Assembly (NCBI GenBank): GCA_004335835.1
Contig: RWJK01001552.1
Location: forward strand, 31,836-95,835
DNA: 64,000 bases
Source: Scenedesmus sp. ARA3
Lineage: Eukaryota > Chlorophyta > Chlorophyceae > Sphaeropleales > Scenedesmaceae
Direction of reading: 5' to 3'
The notes under the pieces are model-generated. The model was not told the DNA's origin, did not search any database, and saw nothing but the letters and a program-made list of their open reading frames with translations. The position numbers and the translations under genes were made by a program. The stretch's first letter is position 1; each line of letters opens with the position of its first letter. Below are positions 36,772-63,119 of this stretch, one piece after another.

Positions 36772-37342
36772 ATGCCTCGGGAGCTCATCACAGTGCAAGT
36801 GGGCCAATGTGGCAACCAGATCGGTTGCCGCTTCTGGGAGCTGGCGCTGCGCGAGCATGCAGCTTACAACCCCTCTGGCTTATACGATGATGCCCTCAGC
36901 AGCTTCTTCAGGAATGTGGACCAGCGCCAGCAGCCTCCTTTGTGAGTAGGCCATTGCACATACAAATGTAGCAGCTGAGCAACTAGCGCAGCTGGGAAAA
37001 TTTGGGCAAGCGAGGGGAGCACAGCCTAGCAGCCTTGCTAAAACCTGCTTGCACTGCCTCTGGTTTCTGGTGCTACAGGCATGTGTTTAGATCTGTGATG
37101 GCAAACAGCAGCATGCGTGCACAGCTTACGGCGGAGGCTCTCACACCGATACACACAGTTGTTGCTGTGCCTGATGTGGTGCAATCAGCAACTGCTGAGG
37201 TTGCTGAACCAGCTCTGCTTGCCTGCCACTGCAGGAACCTGCCTGTGGGCAATGGCATGGGCGCCATCCAAAACCTCAAGGTGTGCAGCTGCGCCGTAGC
37301 GCAGCTGCACCAGGCTAATGCATGGGGCACCCTTGCGCAGAT

Positions 37343-37373
<31 letters not shown>

Positions 37374-39118
37374 AGGACATGCGCACCTGAGCACGCATCA
37401 GCTGCTCCTGGCCAACAATCACAGCTCTACTCATGCTTGTGTACCTGGGCATGGGGTGATCATATGTGTGCCGGAAGCACACCAAAGCAATACCAGCAGC
37501 ACTGCGCCCAGTGCAGCTGGTGGCAGTGACACGGTCCTCCTACCTGCTGTTGTTGTCCTGCAGGCGCGGGCAGTTGTCGTGGACATGGAGGAAGGCGTCA
37601 TCCAGCACATGCTCAAGGTGCGGCATGGCTGCTGCTGCTGCCGCTGCTGCTGCTGTGCCTGGCTGGCACAGCTGCGCTGCCTGCAGGGCCAACTGCTGCA
37701 CATGGCTGGCCAGACGCCGCCACTTGCCAGCTTGCTGGGTGCATCAGGACATCAGCTCTGCGCTCTTCTGCTCACCTCAAACCTCGGCTGATTGTCTGTG
37801 TGCCGCTGCTCACACTGGTAGCCTGTCTCATTCTCTGTCCTCACCCCTCCTTTCTCACACCTACCTTGTTGCGCGCTGTCGTCTTGCAGGGCCCGCTTTC
37901 GCAGCTGTTTGACTCGCAGCAGCTGCTGTACGACGTCAGCGGCGCCGGCAACAACTGGGCGCACGGCCACCACGGCTACGGCCCGCAGTACCGCGAGGCG
38001 CTGCTGGGCCGGCTGCAGGCAGCTGCTGAGGCTGCCGACAGCCTGCAGGGCTTCCTGCTGCTGCACAGCCTGGGCGGGGGCACCGGCAGCGGGCTGGGCA
38101 CGTACCTGCTGGGACTGCTCGAGGTGCGGTAGTGTAGGGGTTTGCATGGCTGATGCCAGCGCATAACAGCCGTTGATGTGGTTGTACGCAGTTTAGTACA
38201 ACACAACTGCGCCTGTGTGTGCAGTGCTCCGTGGCAAGTGTGGTTGCAGGCTGGGTTTGTACCTGGAGGGGCTGCTGGAGGTGCGGTGGACTTGGAGGTA
38301 TCTGCATCGCTGCATGTGGGCGTGTGTATTTGCTGATGTGTGGTGGCACCGGCAGCGGGCTGGGCACGTACCTGCTGGGGCTGCTGCAGGTGCGGCGATC
38401 TTAGAGGTGCTTACAGAGCTGCATTCATGTAGGTGTGCATGCATGTGTGTGCGGCTATGTGGTGATGTGTGGTGGCACCAGCAGCGGGCTGGGCACGTAC
38501 CTGCTGGGGCTGCTGGAGGTGCGGCGCAGCTGGCGCATTGAGGCTGCTTTCGGCTGTTTAGATGGTATGTATGTGAGTGTGCCTGGTGCGGTTGCAGACT
38601 GGAGTTGGCTTGCAATGCTGGGGCTGCTGGAGGTGATCACTGAGCTGCCTTCATGTGTGTAGGTGTGCATGTGGGCGTGTGTATTTGCTGATGTGTGGTG
38701 GCACCGGCAGCGGGCTGGGCACGTACCTNNNNNNNNNNNNNNNNNNNNNNNNNNNNNNNNNNNNNNNNNNNNNNNNNNTGCAATGCTGGGGCTGCTGGAG
38801 GTGATCACTGAGCTGCCTTCATGTGTGTAGGTGTGCATGTGTGTGCGGCTATGTGGTGATGTGTGGTGGCACCGGCAGCGGGCTGGGCACGTACCTGCTG
38901 GGGCTGCTGGAGGTGCGGTAGTGGTGGCGCTGCTTGCGTGCAGGGCAGCGTGTGCATGTGCGAATGTGTTGATGCAGGGCATGCATGATGTGGCAGGTAA
39001 ACAGGGCAGCAACATATCGTATGTGTGGTATGTATGGATGTGTGCTTGTCTTGGCTCCATGCTGCTGCGTCACAGTGCCTGTTGCCTTGGGTTGCTGCTG
39101 GCACGGTCTTTGCTGAGC

Positions 39119-39152
<34 letters not shown>

Positions 39153-42143
39153 CACGCCTATTGCAGGATGACTTCCCTAAGGCGCTCCGCGTCTCTGCAA
39201 ACGTTTAATGCTGCATGCATGGCACGGCCTGTGCTGAGCCCTGCTGCTGCTGCTGCCGCCGCATGCCTCTTGCAGGATGAGTTCCCGGAGGTGTTCCGCT
39301 TCTCTGCCCCCGTGTTCCCCTCAGAGGATGATCATGTGGTGACCAGCCCATACAATGCAGCGCTGGCGGCAACTTGTTTAGTAGAGAGTGCCAGCTGCGT
39401 GCTGCCAGTGGAGAACCAAGCCTTAGGCGCTATTGCCGGCAGGTGCGTGGGCAGGCAGGGCGGTGAGATGTCAACAGAGTGCTGTGCATGAGCAGCTGAT
39501 GAAGCGCCAGCTGCGTGCTGCCAGTGGAGAACCACGCCCTAAGCTCTATTGCTGGCAGGTAGGTGAACAGGGTAGTTGAAGATGTCAACATAGTGGTGTC
39601 AGTTTGGTGCAACAGCAGCGGGCGAGGCGGTAGGTGGAGTGCTGGCTGTGTGCTGCCAGTGGACAGCCAAGCCCTGGGGGCTATTGCCGGCAGGTGAGCG
39701 GGCAGGGTGGTGCAGCGTCAGTAGGGTGGCGTATTTGGTGGCTCAAGTGGGTGAGGCGCCAACTGCGTGCTGCCCCCGGGGAGCCAACCCCTCGGGGGCA
39801 TTTTTGGCAGGTGGGCTGGGCAGGGTGCGGGGACAGCAGATGGAGCGCAGTTGCATCCAAGGAAGCCACTGCTGTGTGCTGCTGGTGGTGCTGCCAGGGT
39901 AAGTCAGCAGGTGGTTCCATCAACAATAACAATTACTGTTTGCGCACGTGTGCGTGCTTGCTGGATCATACACGAGCAAGACAACCAACCACCGACTTGT
40001 TTTGCTTCAATGCCACCCACGTATGCTACCGCTGCTGTTGCTGTTGCCCTGCAGGCTGGAGGCTGCCACTGCCAAGGGCACCGCAGCAGCAGGCAGCAGC
40101 CTGGGGGGCCCTGGCGCAGCTCAGGCCGGCAGCAGCGGCAAGCCAGCTGGCGGCAACGCAGCAGCGTGGGACGCCATGAACGGCATTGCTGCCAACCTGC
40201 TGCTGCACCTCACCAGCAGTGTGCGGTTTGAGGGCACCCTGAACACAGACCTGAATGACATCACAATGAACTTGGTGAGGCGGGGCTGGCAGCCACAGGT
40301 GCAGAAAGCTTGGTGTGCACGCGCTGCCGTCCGCAGGGTCATGCGGCCTAGTAAGCTGCGGCTGGTGGCTGCAGGTACAGGAAGCACAGCAGCTGACTGC
40401 AGCAGCACTGCCCACCGGCGGTGACGCCTCTGACAGCACGTGCAGCAGCAGCTGCTGCCAACTGATCTTGTCCAACATCCCCCGCCCGCAAGTTGTAAGC
40501 AATTGCAACGGCTAAGGTTCAACGTGGTGTCCGGATTGTGTTGCTGCTGGCGGCAGGTGCCCTTCCCGCGCATGCACTTCCTGCTGTCATCGCTGGCACC
40601 CCTGGCAGCGCCAAAAGACATGGCACAGCTGGCAGCACCCCGCAACGTGGACCAGGTGGGCGCTTTTGCAACACAGTAATATGATAGGACTTGTTGCAAG
40701 CTGCTTGACGTTTAGGTTTGATGTTCCTACTGGTTCGAGTCTGAAATTGTTTACCCGCAATGTGGACCAGGTGGGACACATTCGCTGCACGGCAGCAAGC
40801 TGTACACGCAGCCACTATCACACAAGAAGCGCACAAATTGGCGTCAACGCTAGGACTGCTGCGTGGTGTTTTGCTCCTCCCCGCATGAGTGCATTGCTGC
40901 TGCTGGCGCCTTCGTCAGGCTGCATGCCTTTGAAATCATGCATCAGGCTGCCGGTTCGACGCTGCACTACACTTGCCACGTCTCATCTCCCTGTGCACCC
41001 TGCTATTTTTAAACCCTGCAGCTGTTCAGTGACGCCTTCTCGCGTGAGAGCCAGCTGCTGGCCGCTGACCCTCGCAGCGCCACCTGCCTGGCCACCGCGC
41101 TGATGATGCGGGGGCGGCTGTCGCTGAGCGACGCGCAGCGCAACATTGCGCGGCTGCGGCCCTCCCTCAAGATGGCGCACTGGAACACAGAGGTGGGCGC
41201 ATGCCTGGCGGGCTGATTTGTTGCTGTTACAGAGTCCAGTTGTGTGCATGTGCAGCATAGCTTGTGCTGCAACATGGTATGTATGCTTAGCAGTGCAATT
41301 TATGATGCACATGTATGCTCCGATGGTGTTGTTGAACAGGCGTGGGCCATGTCCCGGCAGGCGCATGCCGCACGCTGCAGCCACAACACATCGTAGCAAT
41401 CAGCGCGCATGGCTTGCAGGAGCAACTTTGGAAACGCTGCGCTCACCGCTGCTGCTGCCGCTCACTGCTGCTGCTGCTGGTGCTGCTGCTGCTGGTGCTG
41501 CTGCTGCTGCTGCTGCCCCTGCAGGGCTTCAAGCTGGGCCTGTGCAGCCAGCCGCCTGTGGGGCTGCCCTACTCGCTGCTGTGCCTCAGCAACAACTGCT
41601 GCATCGCCGACACCTTCTCAGCACTCATGGCGCGCTTCGACAAGCTGTACAAGCGCAAGTGAGCCGCCTGCTGCCGAGTGCTGGCATAGTATCACATACC
41701 CACACATTTTGTTGTGTCGTGGCTTGGCCAGCTGGCAGCTATGCGGTAGCATGCCGTCTGTGCACAGCACTTGCAGCCAGCAGGGCAACGCGTCCCACAC
41801 CTCAAGGCATAGGCACAGCATGCACAGCAGCGCTACCAGCACTGCCAGCACTGGCATCTATGACTAGCACTTCCTGCAACCAATGCACCGGTGAGTAACT
41901 CTACATATGTTCATCACGTGCTGTCATTTCAAAATCCCTAACCCCTTCCCTGGACCATCTTGCCCGGCTGCTGCGTCTGCTGTCAGGATCTTTGTACACC
42001 ACTACACAGAGTATATGGAGGCCTCCGGCTTCGAAGCAGCAGCAGAGTGCCTCAACGGCCTCATTGCAGACTACAGGCAGGCAGATGGTGCAGGCCCAGC
42101 CCCCGTCACCCGCATGCGCCCGCGCGGGTTGAGCTTCCTGTGA
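36772..42143 (+). CDS. TUBE1: Epsilon-tubulin
   Basis: Ten exons in phase: 36772-36941, 37235-37280, 37564-37617, 37890-38123, 39276-39442, 40055-40274, 40557-40655, 41022-41192, 41525-41658, 41987-42143 (483 aa; human has 475). Tubulin landmarks are in order: [41 protein letters not shown], the nucleotide-binding loop [67 protein letters not shown] and [12 protein letters not shown]. The Asn-Pro-Ser-Gly-Leu-Tyr-Asp N-terminal loop and the insert before [13 protein letters not shown] fit epsilon rather than gamma or beta tubulin. Epsilon-tubulin (BLD2 in Chlamydomonas) is needed for triplet microtubules in centrioles and basal bodies. Introns 4, 5 and 7 carry tandem copies of adjacent exon edges, and intron 4 contains a 50-base assembly gap. 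Confidence 0.95.
38236..38925 (+). repeat. Tandem copies of the epsilon-tubulin exon 4 end plus donor site (intron 4)
   Basis: At least four copies of a ~55-base block coding [16 protein letters not shown] followed by the donor GTGCGG. Full copies have donors at 38390, 38519 and 38913; one is cut by the gap at 38729, and a weaker partial lies near 38250-38286. The true exon ends at 38123. Spacer sequence between copies (GTGTGCATGTGTGTGCGG and similar) is also repeated. Confidence 0.9.
38729..38778. other. Assembly gap (50 N)
   Basis: A run of 50 N inside the intron 4 array. A round number of N usually marks a gap of unknown size, so the copy number of the array is unresolved. Confidence 0.98.
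39098..39210 (+). repeat. Decayed copy of the epsilon-tubulin exon 5 start with its acceptor
   Basis: GGATGACTTCCCTAAGG after TTGCA, coding [13 protein letters not shown] then a stop, echoes the true start [13 protein letters not shown] at 39276. The preceding (CTG)n and GCTGAGCCCTGCTGC context is duplicated as well. Confidence 0.8.
39500..39815 (+). repeat. Three copies of the epsilon-tubulin exon 5 end plus donor (intron 5)
   Basis: Blocks at about 39507-39561, 39640-39695 and 39757-39812 repeat the exon 5 end coding [18 protein letters not shown], each followed by GTAGGT, GTGAGC or GTGGGC. The copies diverge progressively; the last reads [13 protein letters not shown]. Confidence 0.85.
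40757..40776 (+). repeat. Copy of the epsilon-tubulin exon 7 end plus donor (intron 7)
   Basis: CGCAATGTGGACCAG followed by GTGGG repeats the true exon 7 end (CGCAACGTGGACCAG, ending at 40655) about 120 bases further on. Confidence 0.7.
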
Positions 42144-42843
42144 ACTTCACACGCCTGATCGGTTGCTGCTACACCTATACACCCCCCAGGTGGGTTGTTG
42201 CACAGTTGTCCCAAAGCAGCAGTTCAGCTAGCCTTGGCCACTGTTGCCGTAGCATTGCCTGTGGCTTACAGGAGGCAGCAACTGGCCGCTGCAAGCAGCT
42301 GCTTACTGCTGAGCATGTGGAATGCATTGTAAGGTCAGCCCCAGAAGTACCGCAGTTGGACCCTTTGTGGCGCGGCACACTATGTTGTTCGCAGCCCCGC
42401 CCCGTTCGCTGCGTATGGAGGTATGGGTATGCTGTCGAGCACTTTACGGCTGCCAGCCGGCGGATCAGTGACTCAGCAGCCTGCTACCTGTGCTTCATTA
42501 ATATTCCATCAATAGGCAGCAGCTGTGCAGTTCTGACAAGCAGCATGCAGAGCGCATGGGCCACAGCGTGTCTTTGCACCGCCTTGCTGGCATCTTCATT
42601 CTTTGTGCACGCATAAGGCCATCGCTGCATCCATCGCTGCCTGCTGCCGCCTGCAGACCTCGCTGTGCTGCATCCAGCGCTACGGCCGCATGCCCGACAT
42701 GCAGCGCACAGCAAGACAGTCCGCGCTGTGCTGCGTCGCTACGGCCGCATGCGGCAGCGAGGCAGTCCTCGCCAAGCAGTGGCCTGGAGGCAGTGGCTGG
42801 CAGCCAGTCCTCCCCCTCCTCCTGTTCTTTCAGCCGCTCCTGT

Positions 42844-42892
42844 GGGGCGCGGGGCCGATGGCAACGTTGCCATGGCTCTAATGGTAACATGA
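42844..42892 (+). repeat. Short dispersed element, copy 2 (diverged)
   Basis: GGGGCGCGGGGCCGATGGC, then a rearranged middle, then ATGGTAACATGAT. Shares the GCCGCTCC-x-x flank with the copy at 9454. Confidence 0.6.
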
Positions 42893-43390
42893 TTACCCCT
42901 ACAGGCAGTGGCGGGGCTGCTGCCGCGCATCGCTGCAAGCTGCCGGGCGCACTGCTGGGCCTTTTGTGTCGTTATCGGTGATCACCAATGCTGCCTGCTC
43001 TGCCAAGCCGGTGTGCATACGTGTGGTGTGTTGCGGCACGCGAGGGGTCATCCTGACTTCGCCAGATCCCATGGGTTCTTGTGTTTATACCAGCAGTGTC
43101 GATATGTAACTAGACGACCTGAGACTTTGGCTGTCTGAACCTGCAGTGTCTCTGTAGCTCAGCGTCAGTCATGGGTGCCATACCGCACATCATGTGTGTG
43201 CACAGTGTGCAAGCCGTGGCATCACTCCATGCAGGCTTCCACTGCTCTGCTATGATCCTAGCTGCTACTAGTAGGACATGGCAGCATGTGCCGCTGCAGC
43301 GGCTGCAGGGGCAGGGCTGCATTGTGAAGTGTGCTTCCTGCAACTCTCTAGAGAGTTAGATCTAGACACGGCTGCAGAGCGACGCACTTT

Positions 43391-43434
43391 CGTCATCATC
43401 ATCTTCATGTTACCCATCAAGCCATAGCATCAAC
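43391..43434 (-). repeat. Short dispersed element, copy 3 (inverted, 3' part only)
   Basis: The reverse complement reads GTTGATGCTATGGCTTGATG then GGTAACATGAAGATGATG, matching the right half of the copies at 9454 and 59242. Confidence 0.7.
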
Positions 43435-47275: not shown

Positions 47276-48897
47276 TTACTTGGCGGGCGTGGGCACCTTG
47301 GCGCCTGTGGTGGGCAGGCCTGCTGCCACCTTGAAGGAGTCGTAGATGCCCCACTGCAGAAGAAAGCAGAAACAGCAGGCAGGCAGAACACAGCAAAAAG
47401 AGCAGCAATTGTCAGAAGCCGTAGCAGCAGAAGAGCCCTGCATGCAAGCATGTGAGTAGGTGGGAGGGCAGCGAGCCATGTGCGTGCATGGACGCCCACA
47501 CTGGCATGGCGATGCACGCCTCGACTTTGCTGGTCCGCTGCACTCAGGCTGCAGAACTGCAGACCCCACTCTGCAGCACTTGCAGGCCTGCGAGCGTGCC
47601 GATCATGATGATGCGCAGCTCCTCCCACACCACTACACTCCATACCATGCCTAAAGCAGCACACCATGATGCAAACAAACGCAATTGGTCCCTCGCCACA
47701 CCTGCAGGCCTGTGAGTGTGGCCGATCATGATGATGCGCAGGCCCACACCTCTGAACACTGCAAACACCTAAAAGATAGCGCGACACACTCCACACCAAA
47801 CCGCCGCACCTGCAGGCCTGTGAGCGTGCCGATCGTGATGATGCATAGCTCCCCTGCTTTTCAAAACCACAACACTTTATACCATGCCTAAGGCAGCACA
47901 CCATGATGCAAACAAACGCAATCGGTCCCTTGCCGCACCTGCAGGCCAGTGAGTGTGCCGATCATGATGATGCGGAGGCCCACACCTCTACACACTGCAA
48001 ACGCATTTAAAAAGCGCAACAAAATCCAAACCACACCGCCGCACCTGCAGGCCTGTGAGCGTGCCGATTATGATTATGCATAGCTCTCCTTCTTTTCAAA
48101 ACCCTACACTCTATACCATGCCTAAGGCAGCACACCATGATGCAAACAAACGCAATCGGTCCCTTGCCGCACCTGCAGGCCTGCGAGCGTGCCGATCATG
48201 ATGATGCGCAGGCCCACACCTCTAGACACTACAACCAACATATAATATAGCGCGACACAATCCACACCACACCGCCGCACCTGCAGGCCAGTGAGTGTGC
48301 CGATCATGATGATGCGCAGGCCCAGGCCGCGCGTGAACAGCGCGTACCAGCCCATCTGCTTGATGATGTCGCCCGCGGTGGAGCCCTTCTGCGCGTTCAG
48401 CTTTGACACCAAGTTGTCTGCCGGGTGGGACACCACGGCGCAGAACACGCCCGCGATGTAGCCGGCAGCAAAGGACACGGTCAGCTGCTCGGCCTTGCTG
48501 CACTCCTCGCGCGGCTTGGGCACTGCGTACTTGTACAGCAGCTGCACCACGTTCTCAAACGCGCCTGCGAGGGGCGGAAGAAGCAGCAGACGAGGGTGGT
48601 GTGAGGCGCGATGGTGTCAGACAGGGAAAGAAGAATCCGGGGCACGTGTGTGGTTGTGATGGCATGGCAGTGTGCAGGCATGGCTGCAAGAGCTTTGGGT
48701 GTGCGTGCGAAGATACGCAATGACGAAGGAGCCGTGGAACGCCAATAATTTGCTCGACATGCTGCCACATGCCGCAACAAGCAACAACATATAAAGCATG
48801 CGCGTCTGCAGGCCAGCCAGCGCTGCTGCTCACCGAACTTCATCATGGTGTAGGGGATCTGGCGACCCCACAGCGGCACCAGCGACTTGAACAGGCT

Positions 48898-48939
<42 letters not shown>

Positions 48940-51900
48940 ATACGTCAGGCGAGTCGCCACGCAAAGCATGCATGACGCACTGCTCCGTGCCAGGCACTGC
49001 AGGCACTTGGCATCAAGGATCTGTTGCAGTGCCAGCCGCAACACACATGATGCTGCTGCTGCCACACCCCGCCGCACCGTTCACAAACTACTGCCATGCA
49101 CTGCTGCAGCAGCCACTGCAGAGGCCCATCCTGGCGTGCGCCATGCCCCCAGCTGAACATGCAGCACAGCCAGCATCAGGCTGCTGCTGGGTGTGCACTC
49201 GTGTCACTGACATACATCTGTGTACGCAAGTCTGTTTGTGACGTCAAGTACTAGCGCCATTACTCACACGCCGGCTCCCTCCTGCTGGATGAGCTTTGGC
49301 ATGCCATCACTCAAGCCCTTGGCAAAGCCCGGCCGAGTCTGCACAGCAACCTGCAGCAGCAGCAGCAGCAGCAGCAGCAGGACACGGTGCAGCAGGCAAG
49401 CAACCGCATTCATCACGCCAAACATCCGTGGATAGGTTTGCATGCACCAGCTGTGCGGTTCAAGTGGCCTGCCACCTCCTGTGAGTGTCTGATTAGCGAG
49501 TGTTGCCCATTTTGCAAGTGTAGTTCTGGTTCGACAGCTGAGTTGTGCAGTGTGGTGTACAATGTGGGAGACCACGTGTTTCGCCAGCCTGTAACGTTAC
49601 ATAGACAATGGTAGAATGTGCCATCCCATCCCAATGCAGCCACTCACTTTGGAGTGAGTCGCTGCATCAAGTTGGAGAGCACCGTCTCCCAGTGTCTGCG
49701 CAACGTCACAGACTGGCACAACGTGTGGTCGTGTTGTCCAATATAAATGGAGCCACAGCACCAACAAAGAAGCCCCCATGAATGCTGACACCTGCATGGC
49801 CCATCTGCACCAGATCCCCAATGACCAGAAAACCCTAAAGAAAACCCTCGTCCACTGGACACTGGACTTGTGGCTGCATGCAACGAGTGTGCCGAGTCGT
49901 GTTGCTGTCCTGCAAGCCATGCCCCAGGCCGCTCCTTTGGCTCCAGCACTTCCTCTTCCACCTGTGTCTCTTGCCTCCTGTTCGCATCACCTGTCGCCTG
50001 CCAAAATGCCAACCACAGCACTAACGCCATGCATGCACCGCGTCGCTGCCCAACTCAACAATCACCCAGAGCACTGATGCTCAGCAACATACATATGCAT
50101 CCAGAGCAGCCGCCCGAGCCCTGCTGCCCCTGCTGCCGCTGCTGCCGCATCCCTTCGCCACACTACACGCCACACCACACGTCCCCACACATCGCCAGAC
50201 TCTGCACCTTACCTTGACTGCCTTGAAGGGCAACAGCGCCTTGTCAGCAACATGCATGTGCATCCTGACACATTCAACTACGCCCTCCATGCACTGCTGC
50301 CCCTGCTGTCACATTGCCACACATCGCCACCCACATTGCATGCCACAACCTGCGCCGCACCTTGACTGCCTCGAAGGGCGACAGCGCCATGTCAGCAACA
50401 TGCATGTGCATCCTGACACAATCAATTACACCCTCCATGCACTGCTGCACCTGGTGTCACTTTGCCACAGGCTGCGCCGCACCTTGACTGCCTCAAAGGG
50501 TGACAGCGCCATCTCATGCAGCCCTGTGTGCACTAATGTCACACTCCCACACCACACATGCGTGCTGCTGCCCCTAATGTCGCACTCCCACACCACACAT
50601 GCGTGCTGTTGCCCCTAATGTCACACTCCCACACCACACATGCGTGCTGCTGCCCCTAATGTCACACTCCCACACCACACATGCGTGCTGCTGCCCCTGG
50701 CGCCATGCCACCAAGCGAAACCACGCCACATTGCATGATAATCACACGCTGCATGCCGCACCTTGACTGCCTCGAAGGGTGACAGCGCCATGTCAGCGAA
50801 AAACTCAGCGGAGGCGGAGCCCGCCAGGAAGATGAGCGTCTGGTACTTGGCCACCAGCTCCTCACCCGCCATGTCAGCATACGTCCTGCAGCACGACACC
50901 ACACACGGCACACAGAACAGCAGCATGATGACTGTCAGTACACCTCACAGCCGGTGCAGCGTCTGGTACTTGGCCACCAGCTCCTCACCAGCCACGTCAG
51001 CATACGTCCTGGCAGCGGGACAAACAGCAGCAGCAGCATGGTGAGTACTGAGCACAAGGTCTTTGCAGTGCCAGCTCCACGCAGCAACGCCGCCCGTCGC
51101 AAACTGGGCCATCCGTCCTTCAGGCCATGCAGTTCCTGCAAGCACGCGCTAGATGCGCTGCAAATTCATGTACGTGCTCATTCATAGCGTAGCTCCAGGG
51201 CTGCTGGGCAGGCGCAAGCGCCTTGCGGCCAACAGTGAGCATGCCCCCAACAGCCGAGTCCACACAGCAGCTGCTCCTCACTCCTTGAGATACTCGCACA
51301 TCTGCAACTCCAGGCACCGCACTTGCATGCAACAGCACAACCCATCAGCACCAGCACCAAAATCAGCAGCAGCCGCGCCTCACTTCTTGAAGTACTCGTA
51401 CAGCCCGAACTTGAACGCGCCCTGCGCGGAGTAGCCCATGAGCGTGGGCAGCCAGCCCCTGAAGAGCCCCGCGGGGCCCTGCTCCTTGAGCAGGATGGAG
51501 AAGCCGCTGCTGATGCCCTTGTACTTGGCGGGGTCGGTCTGGATGTTGCACTTGACCACGTCTGCGTGATGGTGAAGCAGAAAGAGATGCGGCAAAGGGG
51601 GTTAGAATGGCAAACCTGGGTGGGACACTTTTTGCATTGAGAGTCATCAGCAGAAGCGTATGCTGCAGTCTGGATGTTGCATTTAATAATGCGTCTGCAG
51701 AGGTGGGCAACGCCAGGCAGCAAGGGATGCAAACCAGCACAGGCGATGAAGTGATGGTGGTGAGACACAAGGGAATGTACAGGTTGAAGCTGAAAAGAAT
51801 GCACCACCTGAAGCACAGTTGTTGTTAAAACTGCATAATTGCGCATGTTACTGGCGTCGCGGCAGCGTGGACAGCACTGCATGCAGGTGGCGTGTGTTGC

Positions 51901-52884: not shown

Positions 52885-53770
52885 ATGTCGGTGACCATTC
52901 GGTTGACCGGGCGGGCAGCAGTAGCAGCAGCAGCAGCACTAGCAGTTAGACCTCGCTTGCGGAGTTGTCCACTGTGGTGACTCTGGTGCTGTGACAGGTG
53001 GCCATTGTTGGAAGACCCAATGTAGGCAAATCTGCGCTGTTCAATCGGCTGGTCAGGAAGCGCGATGCACTGGTGAGCAGCAGGCAGGCCACAGCGCCTG
53101 CAGGCACTCGCTGCATCGCGGCGAGTTACCTATTCGCTGCCTGCAATCTTCGTGTTAGGCATGCCAGGTCAGCTTCTGCAGCAGTTGTGTATGTGTTTTA
53201 GTGCAAACGGGTCATCAAACATGTGCTGATTGACCACTCTGCCTCACCCCACAGTGCATGCTTGCGCGCATACAACAAGCCACACACCGCACAACTGTTG
53301 CAATCTCTTCATGCACAGCGCAAAAAAACCCATGCTGTGCCTCTCATACCTGCAGGTGTTTGACACGCCAGGCGGCCACGTCACGCGTGACTACCGTGAG
53401 GGCCTGGGGCAGCTGGCTGACCTGTCCTTCAGGCTGCTGGACACCTCGGGGCTAGAGCCGACAGCTCACCCCACCAGCCTGCAGGTGGGGCTGGGCTGTG
53501 TGGATGGGGTGTTGCCGACATAAACATTGCGTCAGTTGCATGCAAGCAGGCTGATGAATCATCCAAGAAACCACGTGGCAACAGAGTACAGATTGCTCTG
53601 TTGTGATGGGCGCAGTGGCAGTTGTGCTGGTGTGGTGGTGTGGCAGGGGATGGAGCCGGGCGCACACCACCAGCCTGCAGGTGGGGTGCGGCCGCATGAT
53701 TGGGCTGCTGTTGTCCAGCCAGCCCAGCCCAGCGTTTGTGTGATCTGTGCTGGCGCAGCATCAGTTTCAG

Positions 53771-53808
<38 letters not shown>

Positions 53809-54354
53809 TGCTTTGCAGCAACTGCAGCAGATGCTCGCAGTGTATGGCGGGATGCAGTGTCCTTGTTTGGTCTTTGCAGTACAATGTCCTGCAGCAGATG
53901 TGCTGCTTATGTGCCCAATGGGAATCATGTACTGCATCTCGTGGCTGGCAACACCCTCATATTCTGTCAAGCACTACAACACCACCCTGTTGCTCTGCTG
54001 CTCTGCTGCGCTGCTGCTGTGCAACCGCGCCCCAGGGCCGTGCAGCAGCGCTGACTCGGGGTGTGCTGCAGCACAGCCATGGCGTGCTGATGCTGCTGGA
54101 TGCAAGGTGAGTGCTTCACTGCAGGCCGCAGCCAACACAGCAGCAGCTGCCTCAACCTACCTGCAGGTATTATGGCTTGTATCTCTTGTCACAACCTGTT
54201 GGGAAGCGTTTTGAACAACACTGCAACCGTGCTCGAGTGTGCTGGGCCTTGCAAGGCCACCAGCACAGCTTGTGTGCGATCCCATGCAATGCACTAGTGT
54301 GATGACATCACACCTCACAGCCGCCACTGCCCCTGCCGCCCCTGCCGCCGCTGC

Positions 54355-54409
<55 letters not shown>

Positions 54410-54847
54410 CGGCTCCCCGCCTGCCAGGCAGGGCCTGGTGCCGTCTGACGAGGAGCTGCTGGGCTGGCTGCGGCGGCACTGCAGGGCGCCGCTGCTGCTG
54501 CTGGCCAACAAGGCAGACACGGCAGCAGGACGCAACAGTGAGCAGCTGGCCGTGCCTGGCAATGCTCAGCTAGGCACTGTGCAGTGCTGTCTGCTGCACT
54601 GCTTTTCTTCGTTGCCAGCATGTGTGTTGTCCAACTTTCTGCCATGCCATGCCAAGGTGCCCATTTACTCAACAACTGCCCTACATGTCATAGTTTTGAG
54701 TTGTCCTGCAGCCACAGCGCAGATGCGTGTGTGTGGCTGAAGCCGCGTGGTGAGTGCTGCTCCTGTATTTCCTGTGCATCCCGTGCTGCAGACCTGGACC
54801 AGCTGCAGGCTGACCTGGCAGGGGTGGGCTGGGAGCCCGCCAAACTC

Positions 54848-54902
<55 letters not shown>

Positions 54903-55036
54903 ATGCAGACCTAGACCAGCTGCAGGCTGACCTGGCAGGGGTGGGCTGGGAGCCCGCCACCCCAATCAGCGCCACCAGTGGGGAGGGCATGGCAGACCTG
55001 TACCAACTGCTGCAGCCACTGGTGGACGGCGCAGCA

Positions 55037-55068
<32 letters not shown>

Positions 55069-58000
55069 TGAAGCTGGCTCGCGGAAGAGCAGTAGCATCA
55101 GTAGCAGTACGCATGTACCGGGTGACTTCCGCTTTTCAGGTCAAGGCCTGCTGCAGCAGCAGCCGGACGAGCTGCAGCAGCAGCAGGAGCTACAGCAGGA
55201 TGGTGAGCTAGCAGGTGATGCAGCAGTAGCAAGAGACGCAGCGCAGGCGCAGCAGCAGGAGGCCGCGGAGCAGGCAGCAGCAGCTGCAGCAACAGCAGCG
55301 GAGGAGGCAGAAGTCGACCGCCTAGTGCAGCAGCAGCCAGCAGCAGCAACAGGCTCCGACAGCGACTCAGAAGATGCTGCTGCTGCTGCCGGTGGTGGTG
55401 CTCTACAATCAAACAGCAGCAGCAGCAGCGCATTTGAAGAAGAAGCAGAGGAGGACGAGGCTGCTGCTGCTGCTGCCGAAGGCCCTGCTGCTGCTGCTGC
55501 TGCTGCTGCTGGCCCGCTGAGAATGGCTATCTTGGGGCTGCCCAATGCTGGCAAATCCACGCTGATGAACACACTGCTGGGCTATGAGCGCAGCCTCACG
55601 GGTGCGGCCTGCTTATGTTGTCAATGCGTTGATTGCAGCATCAAGTTCAGTACTGCTCAGCATATGGTTGGTGCAGGCCTCTCGCACACCCTCGCCGCAG
55701 CGTGCTTTGCCGTGCTTTCAATGCGCATGCGCTGCGGCAGTCTGCGTTCACGCCATGCTACCAACCATAAGCAGCACCAGCCACACCATTGGGGCCCTCT
55801 GCCTGCATCCCATTGCTCTGCATTGCATCCCATTGCTCTGCCGACCTGCTGCTGCTGCTGCTGCAGGGCCTGAGCCCGGCCTGACCCGTGACCCCACCTC
55901 AGGTTGGCTGCAGCACGCAGGGCTCACCCTGCAGCTGGTGGACACAGCAGGCTGGAAGCGGCCCAACGCAGCAGCACCCACACAGTCACCCACCGCAGCC
56001 CCACTCAAAGGATCCCCTGCAGCAGCAGCAGCAGGCAGCAGAGACAGCAGCAGAGACAGTGATTTGGATAGTGGTAGTATAAAGGCAGGGGCGAAAGGGG
56101 GCGTGCCGACGCCCAAGGTGCTGGCTGATGCGTCGCTGCTGCAGGCCAGGCGGGCGCTGAGCGCGGTGCATGTGGCGGTGCTGCTGCTGGATGCGCCTCG
56201 GCTGCTCACCATCGGCCAGGTGCGCTGCTGCGCTGCACACTGCATATGATACACGGCGGTGAACGCATGCACTGTGCTGTGGTGAGCAGCAACGTGGAGC
56301 CAGGGTCTCTGCAAGGGTTACTCTTGGCCACAGCTTGCTGCTGCAGCTCAGCTTTGCCAGCAGAGTGCTGCTTCCCTGTAGACTGTAGCAGCGGACTGCA
56401 GCAACACTGCTAGCTCTCAACACATGGCATCACTGCACCCTGACCTCACCCACAGCGCTGCAGCTGGCTTGAAGATAAGACTGTCTGGTGAGGCAAGGCC
56501 CTTGCGGCTTGCCGCACCTACACATACTCACAACACCCCCCAGGTGCACACACACCTGATATCTGCACTTGGACTCCTGCGCTGCTGCTGCTGCTGCTGA
56601 TGCCAGGCCATCACCCGCCTAGAGCTGCAGCTAGCCGGCCTGGCCCTGCAGCAGGGCAAGGCCCTGGTCATAGGCCTCAACAAGGCAGACGCAGTGCCGG
56701 GGGGAGCAGCAGCAGCAGAGGCGCTGCGAGAGCAGGTGGCTGAGGCGCTGGAGGCTCGCTTCCTGCAGGCTGGGCGGCTGCCTGTGGTGGCGCTGAGTGC
56801 GCTGCAGGGGCAGGGCAGTGAGGCGCTGCTGGGGGCCGTGGGCGAAGCGTACAGCAAGTGGAACAAGCGGTGGGTTTTGTGTGCTGTACGTTGCGGCGCT
56901 GAGTGTGCGGGTTGCTGCAGGGGCAGGGCAGTGAGGCGCTGCTGGAGGCTGTGGGCGACGCGTACGGCAAGTGGAACAAGCGGTGGGTTGGGGTTTGGTG
57001 CAGTGATGGGGTTCAATTGTGTTATGAGTGTGCTACTCCATGGGATGAGGGAGCTGGATGATGCAGCATGCAGCTGAACATGTGTGTTTGGCCCACGCAC
57101 CCGTAAGTGGAAGAAGCTGTGGGTCCGGGTGCTGTACAGTGCGGCGCTGGGTGTGGGGGTTGCTGCAGGGGCAGGGGCAGCAAGGCGCTGCTGGAGGCCG
57201 TGGCTGACGCGTACAGCAAGTGGAACAAGCGGTGGGTTGGGGTAGGGGTGCGGTGCTGGGGTTTGATCGTGTTTTTAGTATGCCGCTCCATGCAAGGAGG
57301 GAGCTGGATGATGCAGCATGCAGCTGAACACATGTGTTTGGCCCACGCACCAATACTTGGAACGTGCGGTGCGTTGGGGTGCTGTACGGTGCGGCGCTGG
57401 GTGTGCGGGCTTGATGCAGGGTAAAGGGGCAGTGGGGCGCTGCTGGAGGCGGTGGCTGACGCGTACAGCAAGTGGAACAAGCGGTGGTTTGGGGTTTGGT
57501 GCAGTGATGGGGTTTAATTGTGTTTTAATTGTGCCACCCCATGTGAAGATTGAGCTGGATGATGCAGCATGCAGCTGAACACGTTTGTTTGGCCCACGCA
57601 CCATTACTTGGAACAGGAGGTGGGTTGGGGTGCTTTACAATGCGGCGCTGAGTGTTGGGTTGATGCAGGAGCAGGGGCAGGGGCAGCTGCTGGAGGCGGT
57701 GGGCGACGCGTACAGCAAGTGGAACAAGCGGTGGGTTGGGCTGGTGTGCGGTGCTGGGCGTGGATTTGAGTGATGTGACCTCAAGCTGTGCTGGCAATTG
57801 TGGGTTGCCTTGTTTGCTGCATTGCGTACGTGTTGCATGGAAGCACGCTGTGTGCTGCTTTCCCTGCAGTGTATCCCCGACCCTTGCAAGCATCAAGACT
57901 AGGCACACAAATATCGTCTGTCTGCTCCTCCTGCTGCAGTGTGTCTGCCTACAAGCTGCGAGCCAGCCTGGCCAAGCACGCGCTGCGCTCCTGTGCTCAA

Positions 58001-59144
58001 CGCCTTCGTATCGCTGCCCTTCTTGCAGTCGACGGCCTTGCACTGGTTTATATGTGCGCACAAACACCAAACACCTTCCTCTGCTCCCCTTCATGCAGTG
58101 TGTCGGCCAACAAGCTGCGCGCCAGCCTCAGGCGGCGAAGCACGCGCTGCGCTTCTGTGTTCAGAGCAAACACTGCTGCCATGCGCCCTTGCTCCTTCTC
58201 CTGCAGTGTGTCTGCTGTCCTAGCAGAGGCAACCAAACACCGTGCTTCTGTCTTCTTTGCCTGCAGTGTATCTTCCCACAAGCTGCGCGCCAGCCTGGCC
58301 AAGCACGCGCTGCGCTTCTACGGCACAGGCGGCACCGCGGGCCTGCTGCAGCGCGTCAAGTGGGCCACCCAGCTCAAGCCTCGCCCGCCCACCTTTGTGC
58401 TGCTGCTGCGCGGGGCCGAGGAGGTGGACGAGGGCGGGCAGCGCTTCCTGGCCAACCTGCTGCGGCAGAGCGTGGGGCTGCAGGGCGTGCCGCTGCGCCT
58501 GTACTTGCGGTGAGTATGGGTGGGGCTGCAGCGTATGTGTGAGTGGCGGCTGGCGCTCTGGATGCAGTGCGGTGGTTGTAAAAGGACAAATTCCAGACTA
58601 AGCCAGGATCCCGAAGGACGCTGGTGATGCACAGCTGCGCACCTTCCAGCAAAGCTGGACCAGAAGAATGCAGTGCGGCCGTTGTGCTGTCACTACTGGG
58701 CATTGTCGTCTTTTCACGGCTTACAGCGTTCGTGCTATACATGCGGCTGGTGGTGATATCCTGCGGTTGCCAGTTTGATGCTGTGATACCTGTCTTTGTG
58801 GGCTGTACATGTGCTGGCTTGGTAGCTGAGGGTGACCTGTGCACAGCTGCTTTGCAGAGTTTTGTGCGCATGTGAATTGACCAATTCAAGCAAGGTAAAT
58901 GCACAGCTGCGCAACAATGCTGGACCAGGAGAGTCTTCGCCATACTCCCGATGCTCCAAGTTTTTTGTGCACAGTTGCTGTGCAGGTTTGTTCTGTGTGC
59001 ATGTGGCTTACTACCGCATGCACTCCTGCCTGCCTGTGTGCTGCTGCTGGTAGGTACAACAAGCGGCCGCCGGCACAGCGCCAGCAGCAAAGCAGGGGCA
59101 GAGGCAGGGGCACAGGTAGAGGTAGAGGCACAGCCAGGCGTTGA
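52885..59144 (+). CDS. DER: Double-GTPase ribosome-assembly factor of the Der/EngA family
   Basis: Eleven exons are proposed: 52885-52920, 52998-53072, 53356-53484, 53759-53839, 54072-54106, 54428-54537, 54909-55601, 55867-56219, 56607-56869, 58267-58509, 59054-59144 (702 aa). GTPase domain 1 has G1 [16 protein letters not shown] and G4 ANKAD. Domain 2 has G1 [18 protein letters not shown] and G4 LNKAD. The C-terminal KH-like domain ([46 protein letters not shown]) completes the Der order. A ~180-residue Gln/Ala/Glu-rich insert separates the two GTPases, far longer than the bacterial linker, and the protein ends in an RG-rich tail. Der matures large ribosomal subunits; an organelle role is likely but inferred. 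Exons 1, 4 and 5 are the least certain. Introns 3, 6 and 9 carry exon-edge copies. Confidence 0.87.
53655..53692 (+). repeat. Copy of the Der exon 3 end plus donor (intron 3)
   Basis: GGAGCCGGGCGCACACCACC then AGCCTGCAG|GTGGGG repeats the true exon 3 end (AGAGCCGACAGCTCACCCCA then CCAGCCTGCAG|GTGGGG, ending 53484). Confidence 0.8.
54357..54407. repeat. (CTG)n tract before the exon 6 acceptor of Der
   Basis: Seventeen CTG triplets followed by CCCGGCTCCCCGCCTGCCAG, the exon 6 acceptor. Confidence 0.92.
54792..54959 (+). repeat. Direct duplication of the Der exon 7 start separated by (CTG)18
   Basis: A 51-base block coding [16 protein letters not shown] with its GCAG acceptor occurs at 54792-54842 and again at 54909-54959, with one base difference. 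The (CTG)n tract at 54850-54901 lies between, and the frame stays open through it as poly-Leu, so both acceptors would give an in-frame protein. Confidence 0.93.
56912..57740 (+). repeat. Four extra copies of the Der exon 9 end plus donor (intron 9)
   Basis: Blocks coding A-V-x-D-A-Y-x-K-W-N-K-R followed by GTGGGT or GTGGTT have donors at 56983, 57232, 57484 and 57731; the chosen true donor is 56870. Spacing is 113, then about 250 bases three times. GGGGCAGGGGCAG upstream of each copy and the CACGCACC/AGCTGGATGATGCAGCATG spacer are also repeated. Confidence 0.92.
57925..58266 (+). repeat. Three copies of the Der exon 10 start with acceptor (intron 9)
   Basis: CTGCAG|TGTGTCTGCC and similar acceptors at 57939, 58098 and 58206 precede the true one at 58266. 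The first two copies continue with AAGCTGCG-GCCAGCCT and CACGCGCTGCGCT, coding KLRASL and ALR as in the true exon. The third copy is short and decayed. Confidence 0.88.
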
Positions 59145-60477
59145 GCTTAGCGCTTAACTAGGGCCGGTAGCGTCATTGCTGTTGCCTCAATACTAGTAGT
59201 GCGATGGTGCAGTGTTGACAGCTGCAAAGCCTCATCGGGCCCGATGGGCGCGGGGTCGATGGCGTTGATGCTATGGCTTGATGGGTGACATGACGATGAT
59301 GAGAGCTGCAGAGGCAGTACTAGCAGCCTGTCGCAGTGCAGGAGCATCTCGTTGGCTGCGGCTGCAGCAGTGACTGCTAATCGCTGCCAGGGCGAGTTGC
59401 GTGTCACGCGACGGGGGCACAGCCCATTGTCACGCGACGGGGGCACAGCCCATTGTCGAGCAGCAGTGCGTGGTGTGTTGACACAGAGGTTGCGTCTGGA
59501 AGCATGCAAGCAGGGTAGCCACATGTGTGCTACTGCATATGCCTAGGCATGCATACTGCATATGCCTATGCATAGGCATGCAGAATGGCCTGCTGTGCTC
59601 ATACCGCACACAGGCTCTAAAACTTCTGCTGGAAACCCAGCAGGGACCTGAGGTGATTCACCGTTGATGAGCTGCACTTTGTGTGCTGGTGCTCCTGGAG
59701 CTAGGCTCACACACTTACACGTGTAACAGTACTGATGTCGGCATATATACAAGGACAGCGCGAGTTTCAGTGGCACTCGATGCGCGGCGGCGCTGCCTTC
59801 CATAAGAGCAGCTCTGCCTTTTACAACTACTATCACAACTGCAGCGTCAGACTGGTACAGCACGCAACCATCACAATTGTTATTGTGTTACACGACGGGG
59901 CCACAGCCCGTTTCCCAATCCTCACGCTGCCGCTGCCCCATCCAGGCCCATCCCCTTGTCCCTGCCGCTGCCGCGCCCCAGCCAGAGCAGCACCAGCAGT
60001 GCGCACGTGTGCATGCCACGTGATGCACCTCACGCTGCCGCCGCTCCATCCAGCCCCATCCCCTTGTCCCTTTTGCTGCTGCTGACGCGCCCCAGCCCCA
60101 GCCACAGCCACAACAGCAGTACAGCAGTGCGCGCCACGTGGTGCACCTCAGGCTGGCTGCACCCCATTCAGGCCCAGCCCCTTGCTGCTGTCCCTGCTGC
60201 TGCTGCTGCTGCCGCGCCCCAGCCACAGCAGCCTCCCCAGGCTCTGGCAGCAGCGCAGCACAAAGAACAGCACCAGCAGTGCAGCAGTGCGCACACGTGC
60301 GCGCCACATGATGCACCTCAGGCTGGCTGCACCCCATCCAGGCCCATCCCTGCCGCTGCTGCTGCTGCTGCCGCGCCCCAGCCACAGCAGCCTCCCAAAG
60401 CTCTGGCAGCACCTCAGCGATAAGAACAGCACCAGCAGCCACAGCAGTGCGCACGCGCGCACGCCACATGATGCACC
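59145..60477. other. Convergent 3' flanks with repeats, no separate gene
   Basis: Between the Der stop (+) and the MATE stop (-). It contains the dispersed element at 59242-59302, a CACGCGACGGGGGCACAGCC direct duplication at 59404-59452, a palindromic patch at 59535-59583 and the tandem array at 59925-60600. Confidence 0.6.
59242..59302 (+). repeat. Short dispersed element, copy 4
   Basis: GATGGGCGCGGGGTCGATGG then CGTTGATGCTATGGCTTGATG and GGTGACATGACGATGATGAG, nearly the same as the copy at 9454. Confidence 0.75.
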
Positions 60478-60600
60478 TCATGCTGGCTGCACCCCATCAA
60501 CGCCCAGCCCCTTGCTGCCGCGCCCCAGCCACAGCAGCCTGCCCAGGCTCTGGCAGCAGCGCAGCGAAAAGAACAGCACCAGCCCCGCCCACACGCCCTG
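59925..60600 (-). repeat. Tandem copies of the MATE last-exon end
   Basis: Four to five units of about 130-145 bases. On the minus strand each contains a block coding VLFFxLRCCQSLGRLLWLGRG or a decayed form, followed by GATGGGGTGCAGCCAGCCTG. The rightmost unit belongs to the gene's own last exon (stop at 60478); units at about 60325-60420 and 60215-60290 are close copies, and those near 60080 and 59950 are more decayed. Confidence 0.85.
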
Positions 60601-62257
60601 CAGGCCCCAGCCGGGCTGCTTGGCCCCCAGCCACATGAACAGCCACAGGCTGCTGAGCGTGACGCAGTAGGCGCGCGCAATGTAGGCCAGGTCGCGCCGC
60701 GCAAGCAGCACACCGCTGGCACCTGCAGGCATGGTGAAATGACAGCATGTGTGTGTGAGGCAGGCCAGGCGAGAGCAGCACACCGCTAGCTCCTGCAGGC
60801 TTGGAGGTGATGCGCATTCGCCCAATTTAGCCGCCGCCAAGCCAGACAGAAGCGGTCGGCTCAGTGGGTAAGCTGGCACAACATTTGCTGCAGCATGCGC
60901 CAAATGCTGCAATGAAGTCCACCCAAAGCCTGCCAAACAGGTGCGTATGGCGTTGCATGTTTCCTCGACCGATGCAAGCGCCACATCACACGCCACTCAC
61001 CAACATCAGCAGCAGTCAGCAGCATGTTTGTTGATGCATCACTTTACATTGCATTACATGCTTCACTCAAACTGATGCAATCGATGCAAGCAACAGCCCA
61101 TCCCCACTCACCAACATCAGCAGCCGTCAGCAGCATGTCTGTTGATGCATCACTTTACATTGCATTACATGCTCCACTCAAACTTATGCAATCGATGCAA
61201 GCAACAGCCCATCCCCACTCACCAACAACAGCAGCCGTCAGCAGCATGTTTGTTGATGCATCACATTACATTGCATTACATGCTCCATTCAAACTGACGC
61301 AATGGATGCAAGCAACAGCCCATCCCCACTCACCAACAACAGCAGCCGTCAGCAGCATGTTTGTTGATGCATCACATTACATTGCATTATAAGCTCCACT
61401 CAAACTTATGCAATCGATGCAAGCAACAGCCCATCCCCACTCACCAACAACAGCAGCCGTCAGCAGCATGTTTGTTGATGCATCACATTACATTGCATCA
61501 CATGCTCCACTCAAACTGATGCAATCGATGCAAGCAACAGCCCATCCCCACTCACCAACATCTGCGGCAGTCAGCAGCATTGCCACCAGCGCCAGCGGCG
61601 CCACGCTCGCCATGTGCTGCCACACCGCAGGGTCCCTCGTCAGCAGCTGCGGCGCCAGCAGTGGCACCCCTGTGGCCAGCAGCCCACATGCTATGCCAAT
61701 CACAACAGCGATGCTCAGCAGCAGCTGCACGGTGGCGCGCTGCTGCCAGCCGGGCGCTGCTGCGGGCACGAATGCGAGTGCTGCTTGCTCCAGGGGCGTG
61801 GTGGTGAAGGCAAGCAGGTTCCACACGGAAAACACCGCCTGGGGCAGCACAGAGCAAGCAGTGCAAGCGATGCAGAGATGCGGCAGCAGAAGGATTGAGT
61901 GCTTGCGAGGCAAGGTCACCTGAGGTGGCAGGGTGCCAGCAGAGGTGCACACGGCGGGTTTGTTTGCAGGATGAAGAGACATCTAGCAGTGTAAGGAGCT
62001 GGAAGCTCATGCTGCATCAGTGACGCGCCACATATGTCATGTCCACATGTGAAGTGTACACACAGTGCTGACGTATGTCGATTGGACAGATTGTTGTCCC
62101 ATCGAACTTGCTGCACATGGGGTTTCATGTGGCTGTATGGTCACCCACCTGGTGTGCTGCCAGCTGCACCCAGCTCAAGCTGGCGGCAGCAGCCTGCAGC
62201 AGCAGTAAAGCGCAGACGGCAGCGCACAGCAGCAAACACGGCGTCATGGAAACATGC
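60478..62257 (-). CDS. MATE-family efflux transporter, C-terminal part
   Basis: Three exons in phase: 62257-62149, 61838-61556, 60722-60478 (about 212 codons); the N-terminal half lies upstream and was not found. The fragment contains successive membrane helices: TPCLLLCAAVCALLLLQAAA, then WVQLAAHQ (the AAHQ-type motif of plant MATE proteins), AVFSVWNLLAFTTTPLEQAA, LLLSIAVVIGIACGLLATG, VAPLALVAMLLTAADVG, YIARAYCVTLSSLWLFMWLG and GLQGVWAGLVLFFSLRCCQS. Relatives (EDS5/DTX type) export organic acids, flavonoids or drugs by Na+ or H+ exchange; the substrate here cannot be told. The intron between the last two exons is filled with copies of the MLLTAADVG exon end. Most upstream sequence in the window is tandem repeat, so the 5' exons probably lie beyond the right edge. 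Confidence 0.83.
60985..61551 (-). repeat. 111-base tandem array carrying copies of the MATE exon end plus donor
   Basis: Five units with CACCAACA borders at 60998, 61109, 61220, 61330 and 61442; the true exon border is at 61552. On the minus strand each unit has an ATG CTG CTG ACx GCx GCx GxT GTT G block followed by GTGAGTGG, coding MLLTAADV or MLLTAAVV. The rest of the unit (TTGATGCATCACATTACATT and following) is intronic and shared among units. Confidence 0.95.
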
Positions 62258-63110: not shown

Positions 63111-63119
63111 GTAACCTTA

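What the first reader, a model, noticed from the sequence alone, without database searches (positions are those of the whole stretch)
36772..62257. Introns of four neighbouring, unrelated genes are built from tandem copies of the adjacent exon edge with its splice site
In epsilon-tubulin, the phosphate carrier, Der and MATE, I count about ten introns or flanks where the last (or first) 25-60 exon bases plus the donor (or acceptor) are repeated one to six times inside the intron. Copies of exon ends carry GTGCGG, GTGGGT or GTGAGT; copies of exon starts carry CAG. The same never appears in the kinesin, BTB, NudC, RPB4, DUF218, GT92 or UBE2S introns. Tandem duplications across an exon-intron junction would be tolerated because splicing can ignore the extra copies, so this could be a simple route to longer introns. 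It could also create banks of alternative splice sites or mini-exons. The clustering in one 25-kb block suggests a regional process (replication slippage, break repair) and would be new as a systematic phenomenon.
Basis: partly seen in the sequence, partly recalled or inferred. Interest (0 to 1): 0.88.

Follow-up and report, generated by a model that had tools for sequence, protein, structure and literature searches.

The report
Exon-edge tandem repeats in algal introns
In this green-alga genome some introns have been lengthened by tandem copies of the neighbouring exon end together with its splice site; the pattern is real, recurs on other contigs, and is the same kind of repeat that was named "mirage" in amphioxus.

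Summary
Confirmed. In epsilon-tubulin, phosphate carrier, Der and a MATE-like gene, 13 of 50 tested exon edges have copies (1-6 each) in the adjoining intron; 0 of 85 edges in the window's other gene models do. The copies are direct, adjacent tandem duplications, 47 of 71 spaced 99-136 bp. Proteins of close relatives pass the junctions without insertion, so the exon-proximal splice sites are used. The genome is Scenedesmaceae-like.

The "one block" reading is half right: distribution is patchy, but edge copies occur on 6 of 13 other sampled contigs (44 of 504 edges overall). Edges beat exon interiors (38/470 vs 5/291) but not clearly mid-introns (10/219). Array by array, 30 of 38 intronic arrays cross an exon edge under the rule matched to the null, 34 under a laxer one; random placement predicts about half; only 2 are purely intronic. 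Intronic copies carry a coding signature, strong over all loci, weak in the window alone. Best model: exon-anchored tandem arrays that keep exchanging sequence with the live exon and lengthen introns.

Amphioxus "mirages" are the same kind; the algal case and its prevalence look new.

The parts
38071..38976 (+). epsilon-tubulin donor array: last ~53 bases of exon 37,890-38,123 plus GTGCGG, copies ending at 38,280, 38,389, 38,518, (38,744, in the N gap) and 38,912
   Evidence: exon end fixed by ungapped alignment to transcript-derived protein P0001
39132..39307 (+). epsilon-tubulin acceptor copy: TTGCAG plus first 32 bases of exon 39,276-39,442, copy starting at 39,167
39386..39888 (+). epsilon-tubulin donor array of exon 39,276-39,442, copies ending at 39,558 and 39,693 and a weaker one near 39,810 (read by eye)
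40639..40775 (+). epsilon-tubulin short donor copy: last 17 bases of exon 40,557-40,655 repeated, ending at 40,770
47563..48324 (-). phosphate carrier donor array of exon 48,281-48,564; six copies ending (as last exon-like base) at 48,173, 48,045, 47,939, 47,810, 47,702, 47,580; two alternating spacer types
   Evidence: exon end by relatives' proteins
50081..50797 (-). phosphate carrier donor array of exon 50,762-50,885; copies ending at 50,483, 50,361, 50,213; contains a 41-bp intronic minisatellite at 50,533-50,698
50835..51022 (-). phosphate carrier acceptor copy: first 51 bases of exon 50,762-50,885 repeated 123 bp upstream, starting at 51,008
53448..53710 (+). Der donor copy: last 37 bases of exon 53,356-53,484 plus GTGGGG repeated, ending at 53,680
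   Evidence: Tetradesmus proteins P0241, P0242
54755..54959 (+). Der acceptor copy: TGCAG plus start of the exon that begins at 54,909, repeated 117 bp upstream at 54,792
56801..57775 (+). Der donor array of exon 56,607-56,869, four copies ending at 56,982, 57,231, 57,483, 57,730
57901..58319 (+). Der acceptor array of exon 58,267-58,509, copies starting at 57,940 and 58,099 (a third partial one near 58,208, read by eye)
60970..61580 (-). MATE-like gene donor array of exon 61,556-61,838, five copies of a 111-bp unit ending at 61,445, 61,334, 61,223, 61,112, 61,001
   Evidence: exon by open frame only, weak matE match
60699..60804 (-). MATE-like gene acceptor copy: CTGCAG plus first 24 bases of exon 60,481-60,722 repeated 70 bp upstream, starting at 60,792

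Best explanation
These are exon-anchored tandem arrays. A segment with one end about 25-60 bases inside an exon and the other in the adjoining intron is duplicated in tandem, once or repeatedly. The spliceosome keeps using the splice site nearest the true exon, so the protein is unchanged and the intron grows by one unit (most often 99-136 bp) per event. Because the true exon edge is a member of the array, later exchange between members (unequal crossing-over, slippage or gene conversion) passes exon-compatible sequence back and forth, while the intronic part of the unit drifts freely. This keeps the exon-derived part recognisable and gives even untranslated copies a coding-like substitution pattern. 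Shown: the copies, their adjacency, orientation and spacing, the unchanged proteins of close relatives, the scarcity of purely intronic arrays, and faster divergence of the intronic part. Inferred: the duplicating mechanism, continuing exchange with the exon, and actual splice-site use in this species.
For: Adjacent and direct: 44/504 own intron, 2/504 inverted, 6/416 far-side intron, 1/492 other intron. Exon-proximal sites used: the epsilon-tubulin model aligns without a gap over its whole length to a transcript-derived 483-aa protein, 92% identical; carrier relatives (6 of 6) and both Tetradesmus Der proteins pass the array-bearing junctions without insertion. Anchoring: of 38 single-intron arrays with unit 70-300 bp, 2 are purely intronic; 30 cross an edge under the rule matched to the null (window 12 of 12), 34 under the rule used first; uniform placement over 213 array-free introns predicts 0.45-0.50 for units of 115-130 bp. 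Spacing: 47 of 71 between 99 and 136 bp. Spacers are homologous in several arrays, so whole units were duplicated, but diverge more: among intronic copies the exon side is more alike than the intron side at 14 of 15 edges. Coding signature between neighbouring intronic copies: 60 nonsynonymous to 58 synonymous changes, fraction 0.508 against 0.728+-0.036 simulated, 0 of 500; in-frame stops in 1 of 72 copies against 7.4+-2.5 simulated; base context does not explain it. Mosaic: the carrier copy at offset 342 is 33/33 identical to the live exon end but carries the spacer of the copy at offset 108, not the exon's own.
Against: Base-level tests show no junction targeting: junctions lie in duplicated intervals 60 times against 56.5 expected under rotation (window 12 against 15.2; with small duplicated exons dropped 37 against 47.9), and edges (38/470) are not clearly above mid-introns (10/219; p 0.11). 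The array count depends on rules: 28 of 37 against 15 expected; 34 of 38 with 6 exon and 4 intron bases; 30 of 38 with the null's 10 intron bases, binomial tail without L017 (mostly a coding repeat) 3.8e-4 at 0.5, 0.015 at 0.6, 0.4 at 0.75; long units of 200-250 bp have a null of 0.69-0.78. The two loci fetched after the idea arose, on contigs already known to hold copies, give 6 of 6 under the lax rule, 4 of 6 under the matched one. Scarcity of intronic arrays may be better survival or detection of the exon part. In the curated window alone the copy-copy signature is weak (0.60 against 0.697+-0.06, 33 of 400; stops 0 of 26 against 2.2, 36 of 400). Outside the window exons are ab initio predictions, so some copies may be real exons. 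Pairs are not independent. Scenedesmus PABB004 Der has an insertion of about 35 residues at the junction before 54,909.
Confidence: 0.65

Rival explanations
1. Random local tandem duplication plus a tolerance filter. Duplications fall anywhere; those in exon interiors are removed by selection, those in introns or across one junction are tolerated. No anchoring or exchange with the exon is needed.
For: Edges well above exon interiors, not clearly above mid-introns; rotation test without excess; for units of 200-250 bp random placement already predicts 0.69-0.78, at which 29 of 37 is unremarkable.
Against: Only 2 of 38 arrays purely intronic where about half is expected for the usual unit size; exon part more conserved than intron part among intronic copies; coding signature in copies.
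Confidence: 0.22
2. The copies are used: alternative exon ends or mini-exons kept by selection on protein or on regulated splicing.
For: Splice dinucleotide intact in 65 of 74 copies (one of the nine misses is due to my misplaced Der boundary); few nonsynonymous changes and stops; L018 2301-2874 repeats a small exon with both sites; my gene finder called some Der and carrier copies exons.
Against: Intactness is only slightly above what ~12% divergence predicts; 53 of 85 copy offsets break the frame and 24 of the other 32 hit a stop; indels of 1-2 bases occur in copies; most relatives' proteins have no insertion at these junctions.
Confidence: 0.09
3. Assembly artefact: repeats collapsed or inflated by misassembly.
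For: One array contains an N gap and the array-rich zone is the end of a contig.
Against: Window duplicate pairs are 61-98% identical with distinct spacers, which misassembly of one locus does not create; the pattern recurs inside contigs of 112 and 237 kb.
Confidence: 0.03

Closest known systems
'Mirage' minisatellites of amphioxus (globin genes BflGb6 and BflGb9, Adh3; PMC3087553, section 16 and search passages read; the original Adh3 paper, Nucl Acids Res 2002;30:2871, seen only in its reference list)
   Same: Minisatellite-like tandem duplications that span an exon-intron boundary, at either the 5' or 3' boundary, many copies with AG/GT, units of 150-160 bp in the globins, concerted evolution within arrays, no interference with regular splicing by RT-PCR.
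   Different: Other kingdom; here 13 edges in about 25 kb and 44 of 504 sampled edges, spacing most often 99-136 bp, placement and coding signature measured; length instability and RNA not tested here.
Intron gain by tandem genomic duplication of an AGGT-containing exon segment (reviewed in PMC3443670, passages read; potato case PMC4974935, start of abstract in the search listing only)
   Same: Tandem duplication including splice signals inside genes.
   Different: No new intron is seen here: copies lie inside an intron with its usual ends rather than forming its two ends.
Tandem exon duplication / mutually exclusive exons (recalled, no paper read)
   Same: Tandem copies of exon sequence with splice sites.
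   Different: Most copies here look like one exon edge, not a whole exon; L018 2301-2874 may be a real whole-exon case.
Introners (PMC9860276, start of abstract in the search listing only)
   Same: Repeated sequence in introns of many genes.
   Different: Arrays of different genes share no sequence beyond 7 short outside matches for 13 arrays in 277 kb.

Membership tests
Mirage minisatellites | tandem repeats whose unit spans an exon-intron boundary | tested here: met
   12 of 12 window arrays and 30 of 38 overall with unit 70-300 bp under the strict rule; window edges
Mirage minisatellites | occurs at both donor and acceptor boundaries | tested here: met
   donors 26/251, acceptors 18/253
Mirage minisatellites | regular splicing not disturbed | tested here: inconclusive
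   relatives' proteins, one of them transcript-derived, pass the junctions without insertion, except one Der protein; no RNA of this species
Mirage minisatellites | concerted evolution within the array | tested here: inconclusive
   alike spacers of some members and one mosaic copy; no formal phylogenetic test
Mirage minisatellites | length instability between haplotypes | not testable with these tools
   one haplotype, no reads
Intron gain by tandem genomic duplication | a new intron between the two duplicate AGGT sites | tested here: not met
   for the window edges copies lie inside an intron whose ends are the usual sites
Introners | similar elements inserted in unrelated genes | tested here: not met
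   7 short outside matches for 13 arrays in 277 kb
Mutually exclusive / tandem duplicated exons | whole exons with both splice sites repeated | tested here: inconclusive
   in the window the matched exon part is mostly 17-57 bases of exons of 99-698 bases; Der 56,869 copies extend further and were called exons by the gene finder

The most novel reading that the evidence does not exclude
In this algal lineage the ends of exons act as renewable seeds: the live exon repeatedly rewrites the copies in its flanking introns (gene conversion or recurrent re-duplication), so that untranslated intronic repeats evolve with a coding signature, and exon-anchored duplication with a characteristic period near 115 bp is a main route of intron lengthening across the genome.
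Probability: 0.3. Interest if true: 0.75.

Novelty: new member of a known kind. Interest (0 to 1): 0.5.

Why it matters
Intron lengthening is usually put down to transposons and small insertions (recalled, no paper read). Here a simple route, tandem duplication of the exon-intron junction, affects about one in eleven sampled exon edges (44/504), and introns with local duplicates are about twice as long as those without. It also supplies near-identical competing splice sites at known places, which makes splice-site choice testable, and it is a trap for gene prediction: my own gene finder called several copies exons.

Tried and rejected
Spaced templated insertion of the exon edge alone was considered because many pairwise matches fade a few bases into the intron; multiple alignment showed homologous though strongly diverged spacers in several arrays, so whole-unit duplication was kept. 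Introners were rejected. Hypermutable bases do not explain the third-position bias. Alternative isoforms by use of copy sites look unlikely by frame. The first gene-finder setting over-split exons and was replaced. A megablast of one array in the plasmid collection found nothing. The identity figures come from a permissive aligner that gives 0.75-0.77 for unrelated flanks, so only the ranking is used.

Rows dropped before counts: the copy in the N gap; pairs with more than 11 of 33 differences (3 copy-copy and 12 exon-copy); L018 2301 as the same exon as 2874 (not in 43-46); arrays that touch no intron, more than one, or one over 2,000 bp, and two purely intronic arrays outside unit 70-300 bp (L008 unit 65, L017 unit 883); introns under 80 or over 2,000 bp and edges of exons under 30 bp. 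L004, L005, L006 and L026 are from the window's own contig; L006 overlaps the window by 164 bases.
Full report
Where it lies. The window is G000:C1165:31836-95835, the right end of a 95,835-base contig in an 87.3-Mb, 1,567-contig genome. Its epsilon-tubulin is 92% identical to a transcript-derived protein (P0001) and 75% to Scenedesmus sp. PABB004; the phosphate carrier is 95% identical to Scenedesmus sp. NREL 46B-D3 and Der 91-92% to Tetradesmus obliquus. I infer a Scenedesmaceae green alga.

Is the observation there? Self-alignment of the window gives 64 local duplicate pairs, all between 38,071 and 64,000. A self-trained gene finder, corrected by hand for the carrier and Der, gives exon models. 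At the array-bearing junctions the compared relatives show no insertion in epsilon-tubulin (8 proteins; P0001 ungapped throughout) and the carrier (6 proteins); in Der the two Tetradesmus proteins show none, while Scenedesmus PABB004 has about 35 extra residues at one junction, which could be retained intron or a real insertion. The MATE-like gene was not checked by a homologue. With these models 13 of 135 tested window edges have a copy in their own flanking intron: epsilon-tubulin 4/18, carrier 3/12, Der 4/16, MATE-like 2/4, others 0/85. Over all loci 65 of 74 copies keep the splice dinucleotide.

More than chance? Unrelated introns did not reach the score used (three draws per query). Over window and sampled loci, edges score 38/470, exon interiors 70-106 bases from the edge 5/291, intron middles 10/219; Fisher p is 1.4e-4 for edges against interiors and 0.11 for edges against middles. 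A base-level rotation test finds no excess of junctions in duplicated intervals (60 against 56.5; window 12 against 15.2), which speaks against simple targeting of the junction.

Tandem duplication. The copies are direct and adjacent: own intron 44/504, inverted 2/504, far side of the exon 6/416, another intron of the gene 1/492. Spacing between members is 99-136 bp in 47 of 71 cases. Spacers are homologous in several arrays but more diverged than the exon part. Arrays of different genes share no sequence beyond 7 short matches.

Regional or general? 276,997 bases were held, 64,000 of them the window. Edge copies occur on 6 of 13 other contigs with tested edges (C400, C500, C600, C800, C900, C1100) and were not found in the stretches of C1, C100, C200, C300, C700, C1000 and C1200. 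Local-duplicate coverage is about the same in the window (7,517 of 64,000) and in the first 190,997 bases elsewhere (22,157). Distribution is far from even (locus-level statistic 75.8, about 21 degrees of freedom, 0 of 2,000 permutations as large). So the clustering is real, but this block is one patch of several. What makes a patch is unexplained.

Anchoring at exon edges. Array by array, a first count gave 28 of 37 single-intron arrays that cross an edge against 15 expected from placement (window 12 of 12). With units of 70-300 bp, 34 of 38 cross by at least 6 exon and 4 intron bases, 2 touch an exon without crossing and 2 are purely intronic; uniform placement over 213 array-free introns predicts 0.45 for a 115-bp unit, 0.50 for 130, 0.69 for 200 and 0.78 for 250. 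That null asked for 10 intron bases; with the same rule the count is 30 of 38, or 29 of 37 without L017, which is mainly a coding repeat. The binomial tail is then 3.8e-4 at 0.5, 0.015 at 0.6 and 0.4 at 0.75. Loci L024 and L025, fetched after the idea arose but from contigs already known to hold copies, give 6 of 6 (lax) or 4 of 6 (matched). The rules were chosen during the work, so these tails are guides. The plainest form of the result is that purely intronic arrays are scarce (2 of 38).

Do copies evolve like intron? Not over all loci. Among intronic copies compared with each other, the exon side is more alike than the intron side at 14 of 15 edges. Differences fall on codon positions 55/58/123, where base context predicts about 78/82/77; summing the rows by edge, 13 of 15 edges show the third-position excess (two of the 15 belong to one exon). 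Between neighbouring intronic copies, 60 changes are nonsynonymous and 58 synonymous (0.508 against 0.728+-0.036 simulated; 0 of 500), and 1 of 72 copies has an in-frame stop in 11 codons against 7.4 simulated. In the window alone the effect is weak (0.60 against 0.697+-0.06, 33 of 400; 0 of 26 stops against 2.2, 36 of 400); in L024 and L025 it is 5 to 12 from 4 pairs. Since the copies mostly cannot be read through (53 of 85 offsets out of frame, 24 of the other 32 blocked by stops), I infer that sequence keeps flowing between the live exon and the copies. One carrier copy fits this: its exon part is identical to the live exon end (33/33) while its spacer is that of another copy. Selection on copies as occasional exons is not excluded, and wrong gene models outside the window could add to the signal.

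What is known. The kind has a name. In amphioxus globin and Adh3 genes, minisatellite-like tandem duplications of exon-intron boundaries are called "mirages", with units of 150-160 bp in the globins, AG/GT signals in many copies, undisturbed regular splicing and concerted evolution (PMC3087553, section 16 read; passages). I recalled the name before searching for it; the phrase "mirage minisatellite" gave no paper. In searches for such repeats in green algae or more widely no listed title or abstract start names an algal case, but I did not open those papers and only open-licence papers are searched. Tandem duplication is also an accepted route of intron gain (PMC3443670, passages), which is a different outcome.

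Verdict. Real, ordinary in mechanism at its base, named before in another kingdom, but common in this sample and with two features worth following: purely intronic arrays are scarce beside edge arrays, and the copies look, over all loci, as if they were being refreshed from the exon.

Noticed in passing
window 62,353-63,123: 184-bp unit repeated 4.2 times upstream of the MATE-like gene; no exon identified there, so it could not be classed as edge array or spacer repeat.
   Followed up: partly
window 63,121-64,000: Degenerate 12/23-bp minisatellite (CTACCCCGCAT-like) running into the contig end.
   Followed up: no
window 59,920-60,583: Tandem repeats of about 108-170 bp reaching the 3' part of the MATE-like gene and the stretch beyond it.
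   Followed up: no
window 38,729-38,778: 50-N assembly gap inside the epsilon-tubulin donor array.
   Followed up: partly
window 53,003-59,146: Der carries a long Gln/Ala-rich insert between its GTPase domains coded by CAG/GCA runs; T. obliquus proteins have a similar insert.
   Followed up: no
L018 2245-3035: A small exon with both splice sites is repeated about five times at 124-134 bp spacing; may be a genuine tandem-exon gene rather than an edge array.
   Followed up: partly
L017 3321-9164: Large coding tandem repeat region (126 duplicate pairs).
   Followed up: no
loci with edge copies: Spacing of edge copies peaks at 99-136 bp (47 of 71); no reason found.
   Followed up: partly
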